A stretch of 60,837 nucleotides of DNA, taken from NCBI GenBank assembly GCA_903896045.1, contig CAITWD010000030.1:1-60837 (forward strand), written 5' to 3'. Shown piece after piece: positions 43,117 to 53,175 of this stretch. The translations under genes and the position numbers were made by a program. Position 1 is the stretch's first letter, and each line of letters starts with the position of its first letter. The notes beneath the pieces are model-generated. The model was not told the DNA's origin. It saw only the letters and a program-made list of their open reading frames with translations, and did no database searches. This stretch comes from an uncultured Actinomycetes bacterium (GTDB lineage Bacteria > Actinomycetota > Thermoleophilia > Miltoncostaeales > Miltoncostaeaceae).

Positions 43117-44216
43117 CCACGACCGCCGAACCGCGAATTCAGCACAAGCCTGACGACGCCGACCGGGAACTCTTGAACGCCCTGCAGTCGGGGCTTGCGT
43201 TCGTGCGACACCCCTATGCGGAGATCGGTGCACGCATCGGCATGACCGAGGATGAGGTTCTTGCACGCCTGGACGTGTTGCGTCGGGCTGGGGTCGTGCG
43301 CCAACTCTCAGCAATTTTTGACACCCGTGCGCTGGGGTACGAAAGCACATTGGTTGCTGCCAAATATCCGGACGATCGACTCTTCGAAGCGGCGGCGATT
43401 GTGGGCGGACACCCCGGTGTCAGTCACAACTATCGGCGCAGTCACGATTTCAATCTGTGGTTCACGTTGGCGGTTGAACCAGATGCCCGCCTGAGTCTTG
43501 AAGACACTCTTGAGGTGCTGGCGAAGGCAACCGGTGCGGAGTCCATGCGGATGTTGCCCACACTCAAGCTCTACAAGATCAATGTGCAGCTGGATATGAC
43601 CGGGACAAGCGACGTCACTGCGAAGTCGGCTGCTCCTGCTGCTGCGCCGGTGCGCGGTGATGGAGTGTTGCCGACCGAGGATGACAAGCGTGTGATTTGC
43701 ATCTTGCAGCGGGATCTCCCTGCAGTCTCGGCGCCATTTGATGTGTGGGCCGCCGAGGCCAGCATGGATGTCAATGATCTCCTTGCGGCCGCGCAGACCT
43801 TTGTCGATCGCTCCTACATGCGCCGTTTTGCCGCGGTACTGAATCACCGCCGTGCGGGATTTGGCGCAAACGGAATGGCGGTATGGAAGGTCGCCGAGGA
43901 AGATCTCGAACACATTGGTCCACAGATGGCCGCGTTCCAGTCGGTGTCGCATTGCTACAAGCGACCGACCTATGCCGACTGGCCCTACTCGATTTTCACC
44001 ATGGTCCACGCACGTTCCAAAGAGTTGTGCGAGCAGACGATTGATGCAATTGCCGAGGAGACGGGAATCACTGAACCCGATCGGCGCGCGATTTTGTACT
44101 CGACCTATGAGTTCAAAAAGATCCGTCTCGTCTACTACACCCCCGAATACCGTCAATGGGAGGACATCGCCCTGTCGGGAGATGCGCTGCCGATGTGGGA
44201 GCCCGCACAGGTATGA
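43113..44216 (+). CDS. ahbAB: fused siroheme decarboxylase AhbA-AhbB (Lrp/AsnC-like)
   Basis: 367 aa from GTG 43113 with AAAGGAG 5 nt upstream. It holds two Lrp/AsnC-like units. Unit 1 (about 15-155): winged helix, then GVSHNYRRSHDFNLWFTLAV, the AhbA/NirD signature. Unit 2 (about 185-345): winged helix with LNHRRAGFGANGMAVWKV, then VSHCYKRPTYADWPYSIFTMVHARS, the AhbB/NirL signature. A Pro/Ala-rich linker lies between. In characterised systems these two subunits decarboxylate siroheme to didecarboxysiroheme, on the way to heme or heme d1. The neighbours are hemB and hemL, so heme is the likely product. Annotation pipelines often call such proteins Lrp regulators. Confidence 0.85.
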   Translation: MTTTAEPRIQHKPDDADRELLNALQSGLAFVRHPYAEIGARIGMTEDEVLARLDVLRRAGVVRQLSAIFDTRALGYESTLVAAKYPDDRLFEAAAIVGGHPGVSHNYRRSHDFNLWFTLAVEPDARLSLEDTLEVLAKATGAESMRMLPTLKLYKINVQLDMTGTSDVTAKSAAPAAAPVRGDGVLPTEDDKRVICILQRDLPAVSAPFDVWAAEASMDVNDLLAAAQTFVDRSYMRRFAAVLNHRRAGFGANGMAVWKVAEEDLEHIGPQMAAFQSVSHCYKRPTYADWPYSIFTMVHARSKELCEQTIDAIAEETGITEPDRRAILYSTYEFKKIRLVYYTPEYRQWEDIALSGDALPMWEPAQV

Positions 44217-45481
44217 GTCTCAATGATTCCCGCAGCCGGGAGCTCTTCGGGCGTGCCCGAGAGGTCCTGGTTGGTGGAGTGAATTCGCCGGTTCGGGCGA
44301 TGCGGGGAATCGGCCGTGATCCACTCTTTATTGACCGCGCAGTCGGTCCGCGGGTCTGGGATGTTGATGGAAATGAGTTCATCGACTATCTCGCCAGTTG
44401 GGGTCCAGCGATCCTCGGCCATAGTGCGCCGGTCGTGCTCGATGCGGTGACTGCCGCCCTTCCGCGCGGAACCTCCTACGGGGCTCCGACCGAGCGGGAG
44501 GTGATCTTTGCCGAGGCGGTACGTGACGCGATCCCGTCGATCGAGCGTCTGCGGATGACCTCCTCAGGCAGCGAAGCGGTGATGGGTGCCCTGCGCGTGG
44601 CCCGCGCGGCGACGGGGCGTGATCCAATCGTCAAAACCATTGGCGGCTATCACGGTGCGATTGACAGCTTGTTGGTGGAGGCGGGGAGCGGGGCAACGAC
44701 ACTCGGTGTCCCGACGAGCCCGGGAGTCCCTTCCGCGGCAACTGCGGCAACGCGGTTGGTGCCCTACAACGATCTCGACGCTGCGGTGACGGCGCTTGAG
44801 GGGGCAGCAGCCATCATCATTGAACCCGTCGCGGGGAATATGGGGGTGGTTCCTCCGGCTCCAGGCTACCTCGAGGGACTTCGCGCAGCGTGTGACCGCA
44901 CGGGGGCGCTCCTGATCTTTGATGAGGTCATTACCGGCTTTCGCGTAGCGCGGGGTGGGGCGCAAGAGCGCTTTGGTGTGACAGCGGACCTTGCCTGTTA
45001 CGGAAAAATCATCGGGGGCGGGCTGCCCGTCGGGGCATTTGGCGGACGGGCGGACATCATGTCGGTGTTGGCGCCAGAAGGTCCCTGTTATCAAGCGGGA
45101 ACGCTCTCAGGAAACCCGTTGGCAACCGCTGCCGGATGTGCGGTGATTGGGGCACTTGCACAACCCGGCATCTACGACGAACTTGAGGCGGGCGGAGCTG
45201 CGCTTGAGGCGGCGTTCATTGCCGCGGGTGTTCCGGTGCGCATCAACCGCGTCGGGTCGATGCTGACGCCGTTCTTTAGTGATGTCACGGTGACCAACTA
45301 CGCCACGGCAACCGCATCGGATACCACGCTGTATGCGTCCTTTGCGCGTGCACTGCTTGCACGTGGGGTCTATCCCCCGCCGTCGCAATACGAGGCGTGG
45401 TTTGTCAGCACGGTGCACACGACACGCGACATTGCGGCGACGGCCGAGGCCTTGGCCGATGCGATGGGTGAGGTGGGCTGA
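44213..45481 (+). CDS. hemL: glutamate-1-semialdehyde 2,1-aminomutase
   Basis: 422 aa from ATG 44213 (ATGA overlap). GGVNSPVRAMRG at the start, TSSGSEAVMGALRVARAATGR, GGYHGAIDSLL and IFDEVITGFRVARGGAQ. PLP Lys in CYGKIIGGGLPVGAFGG and YQAGTLSGNPLA. It converts glutamate-1-semialdehyde to 5-aminolevulinate, the substrate of HemB two genes upstream. The presence of HemL indicates the C5 pathway. Confidence 0.95.
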   Translation: MSLNDSRSRELFGRAREVLVGGVNSPVRAMRGIGRDPLFIDRAVGPRVWDVDGNEFIDYLASWGPAILGHSAPVVLDAVTAALPRGTSYGAPTEREVIFAEAVRDAIPSIERLRMTSSGSEAVMGALRVARAATGRDPIVKTIGGYHGAIDSLLVEAGSGATTLGVPTSPGVPSAATAATRLVPYNDLDAAVTALEGAAAIIIEPVAGNMGVVPPAPGYLEGLRAACDRTGALLIFDEVITGFRVARGGAQERFGVTADLACYGKIIGGGLPVGAFGGRADIMSVLAPEGPCYQAGTLSGNPLATAAGCAVIGALAQPGIYDELEAGGAALEAAFIAAGVPVRINRVGSMLTPFFSDVTVTNYATATASDTTLYASFARALLARGVYPPPSQYEAWFVSTVHTTRDIAATAEALADAMGEVG

Positions 45482-45988
45482 GTGAGAACTGATCTCCTAC
45501 AGGACCCAACGCTTTCTCAAGGGGTGGCCGAAACCCCTGCTGCGCCCCTCTTGGCACCTGTGGTCTCACCGCCGTTGGCATTTGAAGACGCCATCGGGGT
45601 TGATCTCATTTTGGAAGGGTTTTTGGCCCATCACGCCCATCCCCGTGAAATCGCCCTGACTGGGACCGCGGATCTGGTGCTCGCGGGCGACTATTGCTAT
45701 GCCGCTGGCCTGGTGCGGGTGGCACGCGCCAATGATCTTTTTGTGATCGATGTGCTGGCCCAGCTCGTGGCGCTTTCATCGGGCGTCGTAGCAAGCGGGC
45801 GCCGCGCGCAGTTACCGACGATTTGGTTGGGCGCGCTCGCAGCAATTGCGCATCACGATCGCGCACTCGCCACCGATCAATTTCGTGATGCAGTCCTCCA
45901 TGCCGTGGGATCCGATGACATTGCCGGATTTGCTGCGTTGGCGGCCACTCTCTCTGATCCCCCGAACCTTGAAGAGGTCTTTGCATGA
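45482..45988 (+). CDS. polyprenyl-synthase-like protein without DDxxD motifs (HepS-like?)
   Basis: 168 aa from GTG 45482, directly abutting hemL (TGAGTG). All helical. Residues about 62-105, TADLVLAGDYCYAAGLVRVA onward through DVLAQLVALSSGVVASGR, align by eye with the GDYLFARAF...MLAQ...GELAQGR segment of the catalytic polyprenyl synthase at 51.7 kb. Both Asp-rich motifs and the GKRLRP segment are absent. A VLAGDY-containing, DDxxD-less protein is what the small subunit of two-component heptaprenyl diphosphate synthases (HepS) looks like. It overlaps ubiD (ATGA). HepS-like function is a hypothesis. Confidence 0.5.
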   Translation: MRTDLLQDPTLSQGVAETPAAPLLAPVVSPPLAFEDAIGVDLILEGFLAHHAHPREIALTGTADLVLAGDYCYAAGLVRVARANDLFVIDVLAQLVALSSGVVASGRRAQLPTIWLGALAAIAHHDRALATDQFRDAVLHAVGSDDIAGFAALAATLSDPPNLEEVFA

Positions 45989-47430
45989 TTCGTGATCTGC
46001 ACGATTGGATTGAGCGGTTGCGCAAAGCGGGGGAGTTGGTCGAGATCACTGCTCCGGTTGATCCCTACCTTGAAATTACCGAGATCACCGATCGGGTGTC
46101 CAAGCAATTCGGACCGGCGCTGCTGTTTCACAATGTCATCGGGAGCGAGTTTCCCGTCTTGATCAATCAGTTCGGTAGCGACCGACGGATGTGTATGTCC
46201 TTGGAGGTCGAGCACCTTGACGAGCCAGGGCAACGTATTCAGGAGTTGATGGACCTTCAGCCACCCCAGGGGCTTGTCGCGAAGGTCAAGGCGTTGAGTA
46301 AATTACGCGAGCTGGCATCGTTTTCTCCGCGGATGGTCAAGACCGCGCCCTGCCAGGAGGTCTGGATGGAGGCGCCGGATCTGTCGCGACTTCCCGTCTT
46401 GACCTGTTGGCCCGATGATGGTGGTCCGTACATCACCCTCCCGTTGGTGTTCAGTAAGGACCCCGTGACGGGCGTGCGCAATTGCGGCATGTACCGCGTG
46501 CAGGTGGTCGACGAGCGCACCGCAATGATGCACTGGCAGATCCACAAAGATGGGGCAGCACACCTTCGCGACTCCTCGGGCCGCGTTGAGGTGGCAATCG
46601 CCATTGGTACCGACCCCGCGGTGACCTATAGCGCCACTGCGCCGTTGCCACCAAACATTGACGAAATGCTCTTCGCTGGGTTTTTGCGCGGGGATAACGT
46701 TGACATGGTGGCCTGTCGCACCGTCGACGTCGAAGTACCTGCCAACGCCGAATTTGTGATCGAGGGTTATGTCGATGCCAATGACATTGGTCCCGAAGGG
46801 CCATTTGGCGATCACACAGGGTTTTACACACCGGTCGACAACTATCCGACCTTTCATGTCACGGCAATCTCCCATCGTCGCGACGCGGTCTATTCGACCA
46901 CGATCGTCGGCCCGCCACCAATGGAAGATTTTTATCTCGGCAAAGCCACTGAACGCATGTTTTTGCCGCTGATTCGGATGACCGTGCCGGATTTATTCGA
47001 CATGAATCTTCCGCTTGAGGGCGTGTTTCATAACTGCGCGATCGTCTCGGTGAAAAAGCGCTATCCAGGCCATGCCAAGAAGTTGATGAATGCCGTTTGG
47101 GGATTGGGGCTGCTCTCATTGACTCGATGCGTCATCGTGGTGGACCACGATGTGGACGTCCACAATGTCTCCCAGGTCGCATTCACTGCGTTCAGCAATG
47201 TTGATCCGGCGCGTGACCATCTGATGGTCGATGGACCGGTTGATGCGCTTGATCATGCTGCACCGTATTTTGCGTATGGGTCGAAAATCGGTTTCGACGC
47301 GACCCGGAAATGGGAGGGCGAAGGCCTTGTGCGCCCGTGGCCGGATGCGATCACGATGTCTGAGGAGATCATCGCCCGTGTCGATCAGCGTTGGAGCGAG
47401 TTGGGGATACCGCTTCCTCCTCGGGCATAG
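45985..47430 (+). CDS. ubiD: UbiD-family decarboxylase (menaquinone pathway)
   Basis: 481 aa. FGPALLFHNVIGSEFPVLINQFGS, NCGMYRVQVVDERTAMMHWQIHKDGA and FVIEGYVDANDIGPEGPFGDHTGFYTPVDNYPTF are UbiD blocks; the E-R-E catalytic region is in the middle of the chain. It uses prenylated FMN made by UbiX to decarboxylate an aromatic acid. With mqnA and mqnC in the window, the futalosine-pathway role (decarboxylation of the prenylated or free 6-hydroxynaphthoate) is likely. The operon with heme genes is unusual but sensible for respiration. Confidence 0.9.
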   Translation: MIRDLHDWIERLRKAGELVEITAPVDPYLEITEITDRVSKQFGPALLFHNVIGSEFPVLINQFGSDRRMCMSLEVEHLDEPGQRIQELMDLQPPQGLVAKVKALSKLRELASFSPRMVKTAPCQEVWMEAPDLSRLPVLTCWPDDGGPYITLPLVFSKDPVTGVRNCGMYRVQVVDERTAMMHWQIHKDGAAHLRDSSGRVEVAIAIGTDPAVTYSATAPLPPNIDEMLFAGFLRGDNVDMVACRTVDVEVPANAEFVIEGYVDANDIGPEGPFGDHTGFYTPVDNYPTFHVTAISHRRDAVYSTTIVGPPPMEDFYLGKATERMFLPLIRMTVPDLFDMNLPLEGVFHNCAIVSVKKRYPGHAKKLMNAVWGLGLLSLTRCVIVVDHDVDVHNVSQVAFTAFSNVDPARDHLMVDGPVDALDHAAPYFAYGSKIGFDATRKWEGEGLVRPWPDAITMSEEIIARVDQRWSELGIPLPPRA

Positions 47431-50197: not shown

Positions 50198-50266
50198 GGG
50201 TAAGTACATCGTGGACAAGGGCCGGCTGACATGACCGCACCCCATTGGTTTCCATCAGACGGCCAC

Positions 50267-50272
50267 TACCAT
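50267..50272 (+). promoter_or_regulatory. ubiX -10 box
   Basis: TACCAT ends 8 nt before the GTG at 50281. It follows the bc-complex terminator, so the menaquinone operon appears to have its own promoter. Confidence 0.45.
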
Positions 50273-50280
50273 TGGCAGTC

Positions 50281-50934
50281 GTGAAACGTATTTTTCTGGG
50301 AGTGACGGGCGCCAGTGGCGCCGCCTACGCCGCAGCCGCCTTGCAGGCATTGACCGCCGCAGGTTGTGATGTGGGATTGTGCGTGAGCCGTGCCGGCGCT
50401 CATGTGATCAGCCATGAGCTCTTGCTCGCAGGTCGTGAGGCGCCGAAGGATCCCGATGGAGTGATTCGTGAGTTCGCCAGTCGTTATGCAGGCGGGCCGG
50501 GGACGGTCACCATCCTTGGGTTGGAAGACCTCACCGCGCCGTTCGCGTCGGGATCGTCGCTGGCGCCTGCCGCGCTGATCTGCCCATGTTCAGGATCCAC
50601 GCTCGCCGCAATTGCACATGGTACGGCGCGCAATTTGATCCATCGGTGCGGTGATGTGATGCTCAAAGAGCGGCGCACGTTGGTGCTGATGACCCGCGAA
50701 ACACCGTTGTCGCTCATTCACATTGAGAACATGGCAGCAGTCACCCGTGCAGGGGCCATTGTGATGCCCGCATCTCCGGGCTTCTACAACATTCCGACCC
50801 GTGTCGAACAGATCGTGGATTTTATGGTCGGCAAGGCACTTGATCATCTGGGGGTGCCTCATGAATTACTCGCCCGATGGGGCGAGGATGGCCAGATGAT
50901 TCCTGCCGCAAGTGATACTGAGCGTGGCGCATGA
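50281..50934 (+). CDS. ubiX: flavin prenyltransferase UbiX
   Basis: 217 aa from GTG 50281. The FMN-binding start RIFLGVTGASGAAYAA, CPCSGSTLAAIAHGTARNLIHR and LKERRTLVLMTRETPLSLIHIENM are typical, as is PASPGFYNIPTRVEQIVDFMVGK at the C-terminus. It makes prenyl-FMN for the UbiD decarboxylase at 46.0 kb. First gene of the operon ubiX-menG-polyprenyl synthase-MqnC-like-mqnA, with ATGA overlap to menG. Confidence 0.93.
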   Translation: MKRIFLGVTGASGAAYAAAALQALTAAGCDVGLCVSRAGAHVISHELLLAGREAPKDPDGVIREFASRYAGGPGTVTILGLEDLTAPFASGSSLAPAALICPCSGSTLAAIAHGTARNLIHRCGDVMLKERRTLVLMTRETPLSLIHIENMAAVTRAGAIVMPASPGFYNIPTRVEQIVDFMVGKALDHLGVPHELLARWGEDGQMIPAASDTERGA

Positions 50935-51659
50935 GCGTGACGGAGCCCAGCACCAACGAGCCAGGTCGATTGCCTGCGGGTGAGGTGCAGGCGATGTTTG
51001 ATCGCATCGCTCCCAGATATGACCGCTTGAATCGCATCATGACCGCGGGACTCGATCGCCGTTGGCGGGAGGCCGCCGCCGCCGCCGCCGATCTCGCCGT
51101 TGGTGATGCAGGACTGGATGTGTGTACCGGTACCGGAGATCTTGCATTTGCGCTGAGCACCCGCGTGACGGATCGTGGCCGTGTCGTGGGCGCGGACTTC
51201 TCTGAAAACATGCTGGATCGGGCGCGGGTCAAGGGTGATGCGCGTGGCGGCGGAGTTGAATTCGTCCAGGCGGATGCGCTCGCACTCCCCTTCGGTGACG
51301 GCACATTTGATGCCGCAACGGTGGGATTCGGCATTCGCAATGTCGCCGATCTCGATCGCGGGATTTCTGAAATGGCGCGAGTGGTGCGCCCCGGAGGGCG
51401 TGTGGTGATCTTGGAGATCACCACGCCACAACGCCTCAGGCGCTTTTATGAGCTGTGGTTTGATCGGGTCGTTCCTGTGCTTGGCAAGCTGATGGGCAAA
51501 GACGGCGCGGCGTATTCCTATTTGCCCGCATCGGTCAAACGCTTTCCCGAACCCCCTGCGTTGGCAGAGAAGATGGCTGCTGCAGGGCTGACCGATGTCC
51601 GCTGGCAGTTATTTGCGGGCGGGATTATCGGCTTGCATTACGGACGGGTTGCCCCATGA
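50931..51659 (+). CDS. menG: demethylmenaquinone methyltransferase
   Basis: 242 aa SAM methyltransferase of the UbiE/MenG type. MFDRIAPRYDRLNRIMTAGLDRRWR, GLDVCTGTGDLAFALS (SAM motif I), ADALALPFGDGTFDAATVGFGIRNVADLDRGISEMARVVRPGGRVVILEIT are the signature. The C-terminal YSYLPASVKRFPEPPALAEKM is the family block. It methylates demethylmenaquinone at the last step. ATGA overlap with the polyprenyl synthase gene, whose product supplies the tail. Confidence 0.92.
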   Translation: MSVTEPSTNEPGRLPAGEVQAMFDRIAPRYDRLNRIMTAGLDRRWREAAAAAADLAVGDAGLDVCTGTGDLAFALSTRVTDRGRVVGADFSENMLDRARVKGDARGGGVEFVQADALALPFGDGTFDAATVGFGIRNVADLDRGISEMARVVRPGGRVVILEITTPQRLRRFYELWFDRVVPVLGKLMGKDGAAYSYLPASVKRFPEPPALAEKMAAAGLTDVRWQLFAGGIIGLHYGRVAP

Positions 51660-52630
51660 GCGCACTCATGCAACCCACGACGGCACGGGTCGGTCGTGAC
51701 CTGAAGGCAGCGCTTGCCCGGTGTGAAGAGCGTCTTGAGGACGCTGTGGGATTGGGGATCGAGAATGTTGCTGTGCCTGCCGCGACGACGCTTGCTGCCG
51801 GCGGTAAGCGCCTTCGGCCGCTCCTGGTTATCGCCTGTGCGGGAAGCGGGCGGAATGCCTCTGAGGATGTTGTGCGGGCAGCGGCGAGTGTCGAGTTGGT
51901 GCACATGGCAACGCTTGTACACGATGATTTACTTGACGGCGCGACCATCCGTCGTGGTCACGAGACCATTGTGTCCTCGCACGGACCTGACGCAGCGATT
52001 CAGGTGGGTGACTACCTCTTTGCACGGGCATTTGCGGAGCTCGCCGCGACCGGTCATCCGGAATCGGTGGGGATGCTGGCCCAGGCAGCGCTCGATCTGT
52101 CGTGTGGTGAGCTCGCACAGGGTCGAGCCGCATGTGATCTCGCGCTGCGCGAGGAGGCATACACCGATCGTGTACGACGCAAAACCGCCTCGCTGTTTGC
52201 GGCGGCGTGCCGAATTGGCGCCCTGTTAGGTGGTGGGTCTGATGATGTGCAACAGCGTGTTGCAGATTTTGGTGAGGCGGTGGGCATGGCCTTTCAAATT
52301 TTCGATGACATTCTCGATATCACTGGATCGACAGATGCGACTGGAAAACGACGTGGCGCTGATCTTCGCGACGGTACGATCACCTTGCCCATGATTTATG
52401 CGATCCAGGACGAGCCCGCCCTCGTCGATCTGATCCGTGGCGCAACCGACGAGGAGGCCATTGCCGTGGCATGTGATCGCCTTGTGGGACATTCTGGGGT
52501 GCAACGCGCACGTGCCCGGGCGCTGGCCTATGTTGCAGATGCGCGCGCAGTGCTCGACGGGGATCTTGCGGGTGCCAATCGGGATGCGCTGGTATTGGTG
52601 GCGGATGGTGTTGTGGATCGGTACGCATGA
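51656..52630 (+). CDS. polyprenyl diphosphate synthase, catalytic
   Basis: 324 aa all-helical prenyl transferase. GGKRLRP (49-55), first Asp-rich motif D90-D-L-L-D94, and second FDDILDITG with the K in TGKRRGADLRDGT. RRGHETIVSSHG follows the first. The GDYLFARAF segment after that is conserved. Chain length (likely C35-C50) cannot be told from the sequence. Its place in the operon says it makes the menaquinone side chain. ATGA overlap with the next ORF. Confidence 0.9.
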   Translation: MSALMQPTTARVGRDLKAALARCEERLEDAVGLGIENVAVPAATTLAAGGKRLRPLLVIACAGSGRNASEDVVRAAASVELVHMATLVHDDLLDGATIRRGHETIVSSHGPDAAIQVGDYLFARAFAELAATGHPESVGMLAQAALDLSCGELAQGRAACDLALREEAYTDRVRRKTASLFAAACRIGALLGGGSDDVQQRVADFGEAVGMAFQIFDDILDITGSTDATGKRRGADLRDGTITLPMIYAIQDEPALVDLIRGATDEEAIAVACDRLVGHSGVQRARARALAYVADARAVLDGDLAGANRDALVLVADGVVDRYA

Positions 52631-53175
52631 ATCGAGATGAACTGATCGCACTCCTTGAGGTTCCTGATCCGCTTCGCGCCGCGGGGTTGATCGCATCAGC
52701 CCCTGGGGGATCGGTGACCTACCAACGGGGTGACACACCTGCGAAATGGCTGCATGACGAGGTGGATGAGTCACCGATTGCGGTGCATCGTGCTGCCCAT
52801 CTCGCCGGGACTCCGAGCGTTGCGGTTGTGCAATATGGCGCGGATGTGCCTGCCGCGCAGACCGTCGATCGATTGATTGCGTTGGCAGAACTTGCCGCTG
52901 AGACCGGCATGTTGCGCGCGGTCATGCCCGTACCTGCGGAAGGCAACGATGAACGTCCGGGATCCTGGGGAGTTGAGGATCTTGTGGTGATCGCGATCGC
53001 ACGGTTCCTGTTGCCAGCAACCACTGCGGTGCGTCCCGACTGGGTGCATCTGGGCGCTGCTGCATGCCAGATTGCACTCGCATTTGGTGCAGATGATTGG
53101 CAGATCCCTGCGGGCGATTCGAGTGATGTCGAGCATCTGGTGGCGGCCGTCGGCCGTCGGGCGGTGCCGCGATGA
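52627..53175 (+). CDS. MqnC/MqnE-like protein lacking the radical SAM core
   Basis: 182 aa. Residues about 55-160 align by eye with the C-terminal third of MqnC encoded 1.4 kb downstream: TVDRLIALAELAAETG with EERVEHLRRLRELQDEQPG, VEDLVVIAIARFLL with DYLMMLAVSRLYL, and WVHLGAAACQIALAFGADD with WVTQGLRIGQLALEFGCDD. The CxxxCxxC iron-sulfur site and the first two thirds of the barrel are missing; the N-terminal 50 residues are not recognised. It overlaps both flanking genes (ATGA) and is in-frame without damage, so it looks maintained. A companion subunit of a menaquinone enzyme is the idea to test. Confidence 0.6.
   Translation: MNRDELIALLEVPDPLRAAGLIASAPGGSVTYQRGDTPAKWLHDEVDESPIAVHRAAHLAGTPSVAVVQYGADVPAAQTVDRLIALAELAAETGMLRAVMPVPAEGNDERPGSWGVEDLVVIAIARFLLPATTAVRPDWVHLGAAACQIALAFGADDWQIPAGDSSDVEHLVAAVGRRAVPR

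What the first reader, a model, noticed from the sequence alone, without database searches (positions are those of the whole stretch)
45482..45988. DDxxD-less polyprenyl-synthase-like ORF between hemL and ubiD
The stretch VLAGDYCYAAGLVRVA...VLAQLVALSSGVVASGR aligns by eye with the GDYLFARAF...LAQ...GELAQGR segment of the catalytic synthase at 51.7 kb, but both Asp-rich motifs are missing. That is the make-up of the small subunit (HepS) of two-component heptaprenyl diphosphate synthases in Bacillus. If true, this lineage sets menaquinone tail length with a two-part enzyme whose parts sit in different operons. With the MqnC-like ORF it makes two pseudoenzyme companions in one pathway.
Basis: partly seen in the sequence, partly recalled or inferred. 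Interest (0 to 1): 0.6.

Follow-up and report, generated by a model that had tools for sequence, protein, structure and literature searches.

The report
Non-catalytic partner of quinone-tail synthase
A small, unannotated protein, conserved across a whole class of soil and water bacteria, is a cut-down copy of the enzyme that builds the tail of menaquinone (vitamin K2); it appears to be that enzyme's missing second half, much as in Bacillus but in a family no database recognises.

Summary
45482-45988 (+) is a real, selected 168-aa gene of a Miltoncostaeales bacterium (Thermoleophilia, Actinomycetota), coupled to hemL and ubiD. Relatives occur in 208 of 229 class genomes. The family is a degenerate trans-polyprenyl diphosphate synthase. 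All 14 PDB sequences its profile finds are such synthases. A profile-profile match to the operon's own synthase (51656-52630) gives E 1.2e-6. In that alignment the first Asp-rich motif is missing as a 10-residue gap; the half carrying the second motif is absent. AlphaFold models (pLDDT 95-97) retrieve trans-prenyltransferases.

The link to the synthase is supported by a double dissociation. One family (14 of 14 genomes) lost both this gene and the synthase orthologue; two inspected loci keep hemL, ubiD and the futalosine pathway. Other families swapped futalosine for the classical MenD pathway and kept both (11 of 11 tested).

Best reading: a non-catalytic small subunit working like HepS/HexA. 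It is not a Pfam HEPPP_synt_1 member (no hit in 38 sequences). The 'different operons' claim is weak: both genes lie in one same-strand cluster. Complex formation and chain-length control are untested. The neighbouring 'MqnC-like' ORF is best read as a truncated MqnE.

The parts
45482..45988 (+). Small, DDxxD-less trans-prenyltransferase-like protein (168 aa), proposed non-catalytic subunit
   Evidence: ORF and junctions; conserved in 208/229 class genomes; profile matches to polyprenyl synthases; AlphaFold pLDDT 96.5, Foldseek hits mostly trans-prenyltransferases
45614..45646 (+). Family motif E-G-x-L-x-H-x4-R (residues 45-55): the spot where the first Asp-rich motif has been excised
   Evidence: E45 G46 L48 H50 R55 invariant in 38/38; hhalign gap opposite DDLLDGATIR of the synthase
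45686..45703 (+). GDYCYA segment aligned with GDYLFA of the catalytic synthase (residues 69-74)
   Evidence: G69, D70, A74 invariant; aligned in BLASTP, hmmsearch and hhalign
51656..52630 (+). Catalytic polyprenyl diphosphate synthase (324 aa), proposed partner
   Evidence: PF00348 2.7e-62; closest NCBIfam model HepT TIGR02748, 215 bits, below its cut-off; both DDxxD motifs present
51923..51937 (+). First Asp-rich motif DDLLD of the catalytic synthase (absent from the small protein)
52304..52318 (+). Second Asp-rich motif DDILD of the catalytic synthase (the small protein ends before the equivalent region)
44156..45481 (+). hemL, upstream neighbour, translationally coupled
45985..47430 (+). 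UbiD-family decarboxylase, downstream neighbour, start overlaps the ORF stop
50245..51659 (+). ubiX (50245-50934) and ubiE/menG-type methyltransferase (50931-51659), directly upstream of the synthase

Best explanation
The gene encodes a non-catalytic subunit of the long-chain trans-polyprenyl diphosphate synthase encoded 5.7 kb downstream in the same cluster. It descends from a polyprenyl synthase: it keeps the segment around the FARM-flanking and GDY helices but has lost the first Asp-rich motif and the C-terminal half with the second. The likely mechanism is that it pairs with the catalytic subunit through the helices that normally form the synthase homodimer, makes that subunit active or stable, and helps shape the hydrophobic tunnel that sets menaquinone tail length (probably C35), as HepS does for HepT and HexA for HexB. 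Shown here: the gene is real, homologous, catalytically dead, ancient, and gained or lost with the synthase rather than with the ring-making pathway. Inferred: physical complex, activation, chain-length control.
For: Homology: the family profile finds 14 PDB sequences at E<=10, all trans-prenyl diphosphate synthases, best 0.0064. It matches the class's catalytic synthases at E 1.2e-6 with the 10-residue DDLLDGATIR stretch gapped out, and it recovers the catalytic synthase itself in two genomes (E 2-4e-4). 13 of 38 members hit solanesyl diphosphate synthase TIGR02749, best 3.8e-4. A confident model of a class-level member gives a Foldseek top 50 made up of trans-prenyltransferases, including chains of the heterotetrameric mint GPP synthase. 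Function: of 229 class genomes, 208 have the gene. All 14 genomes of family f4 lack it, and all 14 lack a synthase orthologue (best hit only 1e-28 to 1e-41 or none); the five checked have a single, different GGPPS-like synthase. f4 keeps MqnC/MqnE, and its two inspected loci read hemL-rex-ubiD-ubiA-ubiE-mqnE-mqnA, with the two genes missing from their usual places. Conversely, 11 of 11 tested genomes of families f5, f7 and f79 have MenD over cut-off and no MqnC over cut-off, yet keep the gene and the synthase. Other actinobacterial lineages have a related DDxxD-less protein beside the catalytic gene (L162, L165). Class members Conexibacter and Solirubrobacter make MK-7(H4) (PMC3035278, PMC10722151).
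Against: No complex was predicted or measured. The single-sequence signal is weak (E 0.006) and no curated family hits the window protein. Foldseek E-values are above 0.001 and TM-scores about 0.4-0.55, so only part of the fold superposes. The f4 co-loss may be one evolutionary event. Outside f4 the association (4 of 11 synthase-less versus 3 of 204 synthase-bearing genomes lack the gene, p 1.2e-4) is partly explained by missing contigs, because the genes lie a few kb apart. Three genomes have the gene without a detected synthase orthologue (G441, G489, G551), four more have it with only a weak synthase hit (G042, G563, G596, G597), and three have the synthase without the gene (G021, G456, G531). 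The gene abuts hemL rather than the synthase.
Confidence: 0.72

Rival explanations
1. It is an accessory or regulatory protein for HemL or UbiD, with the synthase-like fold reused as a scaffold.
For: Translational coupling to hemL and ubiD is conserved throughout its family; the hemL-ORF-ubiD order is also seen in Rubrobacteria-like genomes.
Against: f4 keeps hemL and ubiD next to each other (with rex between) without it. f5/f7 members keep it where no ubiD is found in the cluster. The gene lost together with it is the synthase.
Confidence: 0.1
2. It is a stand-alone prenyl-diphosphate-binding protein (pseudoenzyme sensor or carrier) that handles the synthase's substrate or product without forming a hetero-oligomer.
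For: Invariant polar residues E45, H50, R55 and D70 could bind diphosphate. Co-occurrence with the synthase would look the same.
Against: No catalytic or metal-binding motif; characterised DDxxD-less synthase relatives (HepS, HexA, mint GPPS small subunit) work as subunits (PMC7839719).
Confidence: 0.12
3. It is a true, highly diverged member of the HepS (HEPPP_synt_1) family, inherited from a common ancestor with Bacillus HepS (this would be compatible with the subunit role; it concerns descent).
For: A widened profile that includes other actinobacterial small proteins reaches HepS in the PDB at E 0.087 (9kp1_A), and 2 of 18 of those proteins hit PF07307, best 9.6e-4.
Against: PF07307 hits none of the 38 family members. 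The same profiles hit catalytic synthases far better (1.8e-9), as independent degeneration would also give.
Confidence: 0.12
4. Chance resemblance or a non-functional ORF.
For: Single-pair similarity is modest (E 0.006).
Against: Class-wide conservation, purifying selection and specific profile hits.
Confidence: 0.01

Closest known systems
HepS / component I of heptaprenyl diphosphate synthase (Bacillus; Pfam PF07307 HEPPP_synt_1, PDB 9kp1_A)
   Same: Small, DDxxD-less relative of trans-prenyl synthases encoded near the catalytic subunit and a UbiE/MenG-type methyltransferase in a menaquinone cluster (B. subtilis hepS-menG-hepT, PMC12903253). C35 tail in B. subtilis and in tested Thermoleophilia.
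   Different: No hit to PF07307 in any of 38 members. Shorter than the HepS chain in 9kp1 (168 versus 261 aa). Sits between hemL and ubiD rather than beside ubiE and the synthase.
HexA, small subunit of hexaprenyl diphosphate synthase (Micrococcus luteus B-P 26)
   Same: Small non-catalytic subunit proposed to control product length together with HexB (PMC7839719). The widened profile reaches HexB (3aqb_B, E 1.7e-4).
   Different: HexA itself is not among the profile hits; direct structural comparison not done.
Plant GPPS small subunit (mint)
   Same: Non-catalytic trans-prenyltransferase fold lacking DDxxD. The widened profile hits the small subunit 3qkc_B at E 0.011, and mint heterotetramer chains are among the Foldseek hits.
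   Different: Nearly full-length fold, plant plastid enzyme, short products.
Catalytic polyprenyl diphosphate synthase of the same cluster (PF00348; closest NCBIfam model HepT TIGR02748)
   Same: Clear sequence relationship over the FARM-flanking and GDY helices.
   Different: The small protein lacks both Asp-rich motifs and the C-terminal half.

Membership tests
HepS / HEPPP_synt_1 (PF07307) | Scores against the PF07307 profile | tested here: not met
   No hit in the window protein, in 38 members at E<=10 or in the whole genome; the B. subtilis control rings
HepS / HEPPP_synt_1 (PF07307) | Relative of trans-prenyl synthases that lacks both Asp-rich motifs | tested here: met
HepS / HEPPP_synt_1 (PF07307) | Encoded with a catalytic long-chain synthase in a menaquinone cluster | tested here: met
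   Same-strand cluster in the window and relatives; contiguous gene string in Rubrobacteria-like genomes
HepS / HEPPP_synt_1 (PF07307) | Required for activity of the catalytic subunit and forms a complex with it | not testable with these tools
   Only indirect: co-loss of the two genes in family f4
Non-catalytic subunits of trans-prenyltransferases (functional class) | All-helical trans-prenyltransferase fold | tested here: met
   Two confident AlphaFold models; Foldseek lists dominated by trans-prenyltransferases, though with E above 0.001 and TM 0.4-0.55
Non-catalytic subunits of trans-prenyltransferases (functional class) | Phylogenetic co-occurrence with a catalytic partner | tested here: met
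   about ten discordant genomes remain, some of them probably assembly gaps
Catalytic polyprenyl synthase (PF00348) | Two DDxxD motifs | tested here: not met

The most novel reading that the evidence does not exclude
An unnamed family of non-catalytic polyprenyl-synthase subunits that arose separately from Bacillus HepS, through loss of the first Asp-rich motif and of the C-terminal half. It would make the menaquinone-tail enzyme of Thermoleophilia and Rubrobacteria-like bacteria an obligate two-part enzyme, a pairing that outlived the exchange between the futalosine and classical ring pathways.
Probability: 0.4. Interest if true: 0.6.

Novelty: new variant of a known kind. Interest (0 to 1): 0.5.

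Why it matters
It would give a large, ecologically common bacterial class a two-part quinone-tail synthase and an explanation to test for its unusual MK-7(H4) quinones. It would also explain a conserved unannotated gene, show that dead-subunit prenyl synthases may have arisen repeatedly, and offer a compact pair (168 + 324 aa) for studying how a non-catalytic partner sets prenyl chain length.

Tried and rejected
PF07307 membership: rejected (396 Actinomycetota genomes, where the few sub-threshold hits that were read fell in frames homologous to polyprenyl synthases). Single-sequence PDB search with the window protein: nothing useful. Accessory to HemL or UbiD: disfavoured by the f4 and f5/f7 patterns. 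Widened alignment A5 gives much stronger PDB hits (1.8e-9), but it includes L077 and L166, and 2 of its 18 members hit PF00348 on their own, so the homology claim rests on A1 alone. A plasmid search found nothing. Literature searches for Miltoncostaea quinones and for a HepS/HepT structure paper gave nothing usable; the HexA/HexB structure paper is not held.

Full report
Observation. The ORF at 45482-45988 (+) is exactly as described: 168 aa, GTG start directly after the hemL stop, stop codon overlapping the ubiD start. It is a genuine gene. 53 of 61 relatives carry it, nearly all family members start with a 4-base overlap of the hemL stop, the order ahb-hemL-ORF-ubiD is kept, and substitutions concentrate at third positions. 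The named relatives place the window in Miltoncostaeales, class Thermoleophilia, Actinomycetota.

Is it a synthase relative? Profiles make this firm. A 38-member alignment (A1) used against the PDB returns 14 hits at E<=10, all of them trans-prenyl diphosphate synthases. Against an alignment of 23 class synthases (A3) it gives probability 91%, E 1.2e-6. Scanned over genomes it also recovers the catalytic synthase in two of them (identified through for G016 and by position before mqnE, for G048). Thirteen members hit solanesyl diphosphate synthase TIGR02749, best 3.8e-4. AlphaFold models are confident (pLDDT 96.5 and 94.6) and Foldseek lists are dominated by trans-prenyltransferases. The overlap is partial, though: TM about 0.4-0.55 and no E below 0.001.

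Anatomy. In the profile alignment the ORF's ...LILEGFLAH-HAHPRE... faces ...LVHMATLVH-DDLLDGATIR-RGHET... of the synthase, so the first Asp-rich motif is missing as a 10-residue gap. In most family members HHGxPR then faces RGxPT. The ORF ends before the region of the second motif. The residues around the gap, E-G-x-L-x-H-x4-R, are invariant in 38 of 38 members, so the dead site is under selection. What is kept includes the GDY helix region; from general knowledge of this fold, helices of this region form the synthase dimer interface, which is why a heteromer is the natural inference.

What does it go with? Three comparisons separate the candidate partners. (i) Of 229 class genomes at least 90% complete, 208 have the gene, and a synthase orthologue is present in about 204 by my threshold of best A3 hit below 1e-75. 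(ii) All 14 genomes of family f4 lack the gene and also lack a synthase orthologue; the five examined have one different, GGPPS-like synthase. The five f4 genomes tested keep MqnC and a second MqnC/MqnE-type protein. Two f4 loci read hemL-rex-ubiD-ubiA-ubiE-mqnE-mqnA. In family f6 the ORF sits between rex and ubiD, and in f3 and Rubrobacteria-like genomes the synthase sits between ubiE and mqnE, so both genes have dropped out of their usual places in f4. (iii) In the 20 genomes tested, MenD over cut-off (11 genomes of f5, f7, f79) and MqnC over cut-off (9 genomes) exclude each other. The 11 classical-pathway genomes keep both the gene and the synthase. The gene therefore follows the tail enzyme, not the ring pathway, hemL or ubiD.

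Caveats on co-occurrence. The f4 loss may be one event. Outside f4 the association is p 1.2e-4, computed from a table that I read off by hand, and missing contigs inflate it. Discordant genomes: G441, G489 and G551 have the gene without a synthase orthologue, G042, G563, G596 and G597 have it with only a weak synthase hit, and G021, G456 and G531 have the synthase without the gene; in G021 hemL itself was not found convincingly, which suggests an assembly gap.

Wider distribution. Other actinobacterial lineages carry a small DDxxD-less protein beside the catalytic synthase (L162, L165), related to this family at E 2.2e-8 in a profile comparison with a set that also includes L077, L079 and L166.

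Comparison with the known. It works like HepS/HexA in every respect that could be tested, but it does not score as HEPPP_synt_1. A widened profile reaches HepS only at E 0.087 while matching catalytic synthases at 1.8e-9, so common descent with HepS and independent degeneration cannot be told apart. Menaquinone data fit a C35 product: Conexibacter and Solirubrobacter have MK-7(H4) (PMC3035278, PMC10722151), the same number of isoprene units as the HepS/HepT product. No quinone record for Miltoncostaeales was found in the papers searched.

'Different operons' overstates it: the two genes lie 5.7 kb apart on one strand within a hemL-to-mqnC cluster, and in Rubrobacteria-like genomes the string is uninterrupted. 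The 'MqnC-like' ORF lies where other families have mqnE, its best specific match is MqnE, and an intact MqnE-like gene lies elsewhere in the genome.

Verdict. A real family of non-catalytic trans-prenyl-synthase proteins without a Pfam or NCBIfam model, most likely the second subunit of the menaquinone-tail synthase of Thermoleophilia. Homology and the genetic link to the synthase are shown by computation; complex formation, activation and chain-length control are inferred.

Noticed in passing
52627-53175: The 'MqnC-like' 182-aa ORF sits exactly where other families have full-length mqnE (ubiE-pps-mqnE-mqnA-mqnC) and best matches the later part of MqnE (TIGR03700 positions 151-304). It looks like a truncated MqnE kept across the Miltoncostaeales family, while an intact MqnE-like gene lies at G000:C36:37593-38660.
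   Followed up: partly
L198, L199 (family f4): The unnamed Thermoleophilia family f4 has replaced the two-gene tail-synthase set by a single GGPPS-like synthase encoded elsewhere, and has the redox regulator rex between hemL and ubiD.
   Followed up: partly
families f5, f7, f79 versus f1, f3, f4, f6, f8: In the 20 genomes tested (19 Thermoleophilia and one Rubrobacteria-like), those with the classical MenD pathway and those with the futalosine MqnC pathway are mutually exclusive by family: a switch of ring pathway within one class.
   Followed up: no
L077, L079, L080, L166: Other small-genome Actinomycetota lineages carry a 250-280 aa protein with LxxGDYYYAKA and no DDxxD motif, homologous to polyprenyl synthases, next to a geranylgeranyl-reductase-like gene (name from reading the sequence) in several of them. 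Role unknown.
   Followed up: no
L209 (G000:C28): The window's genome has CofG-like and CofH-like genes side by side, the CofH-like one with a roughly 270-residue N-terminal extension; family assignment here is by eye.
   Followed up: no
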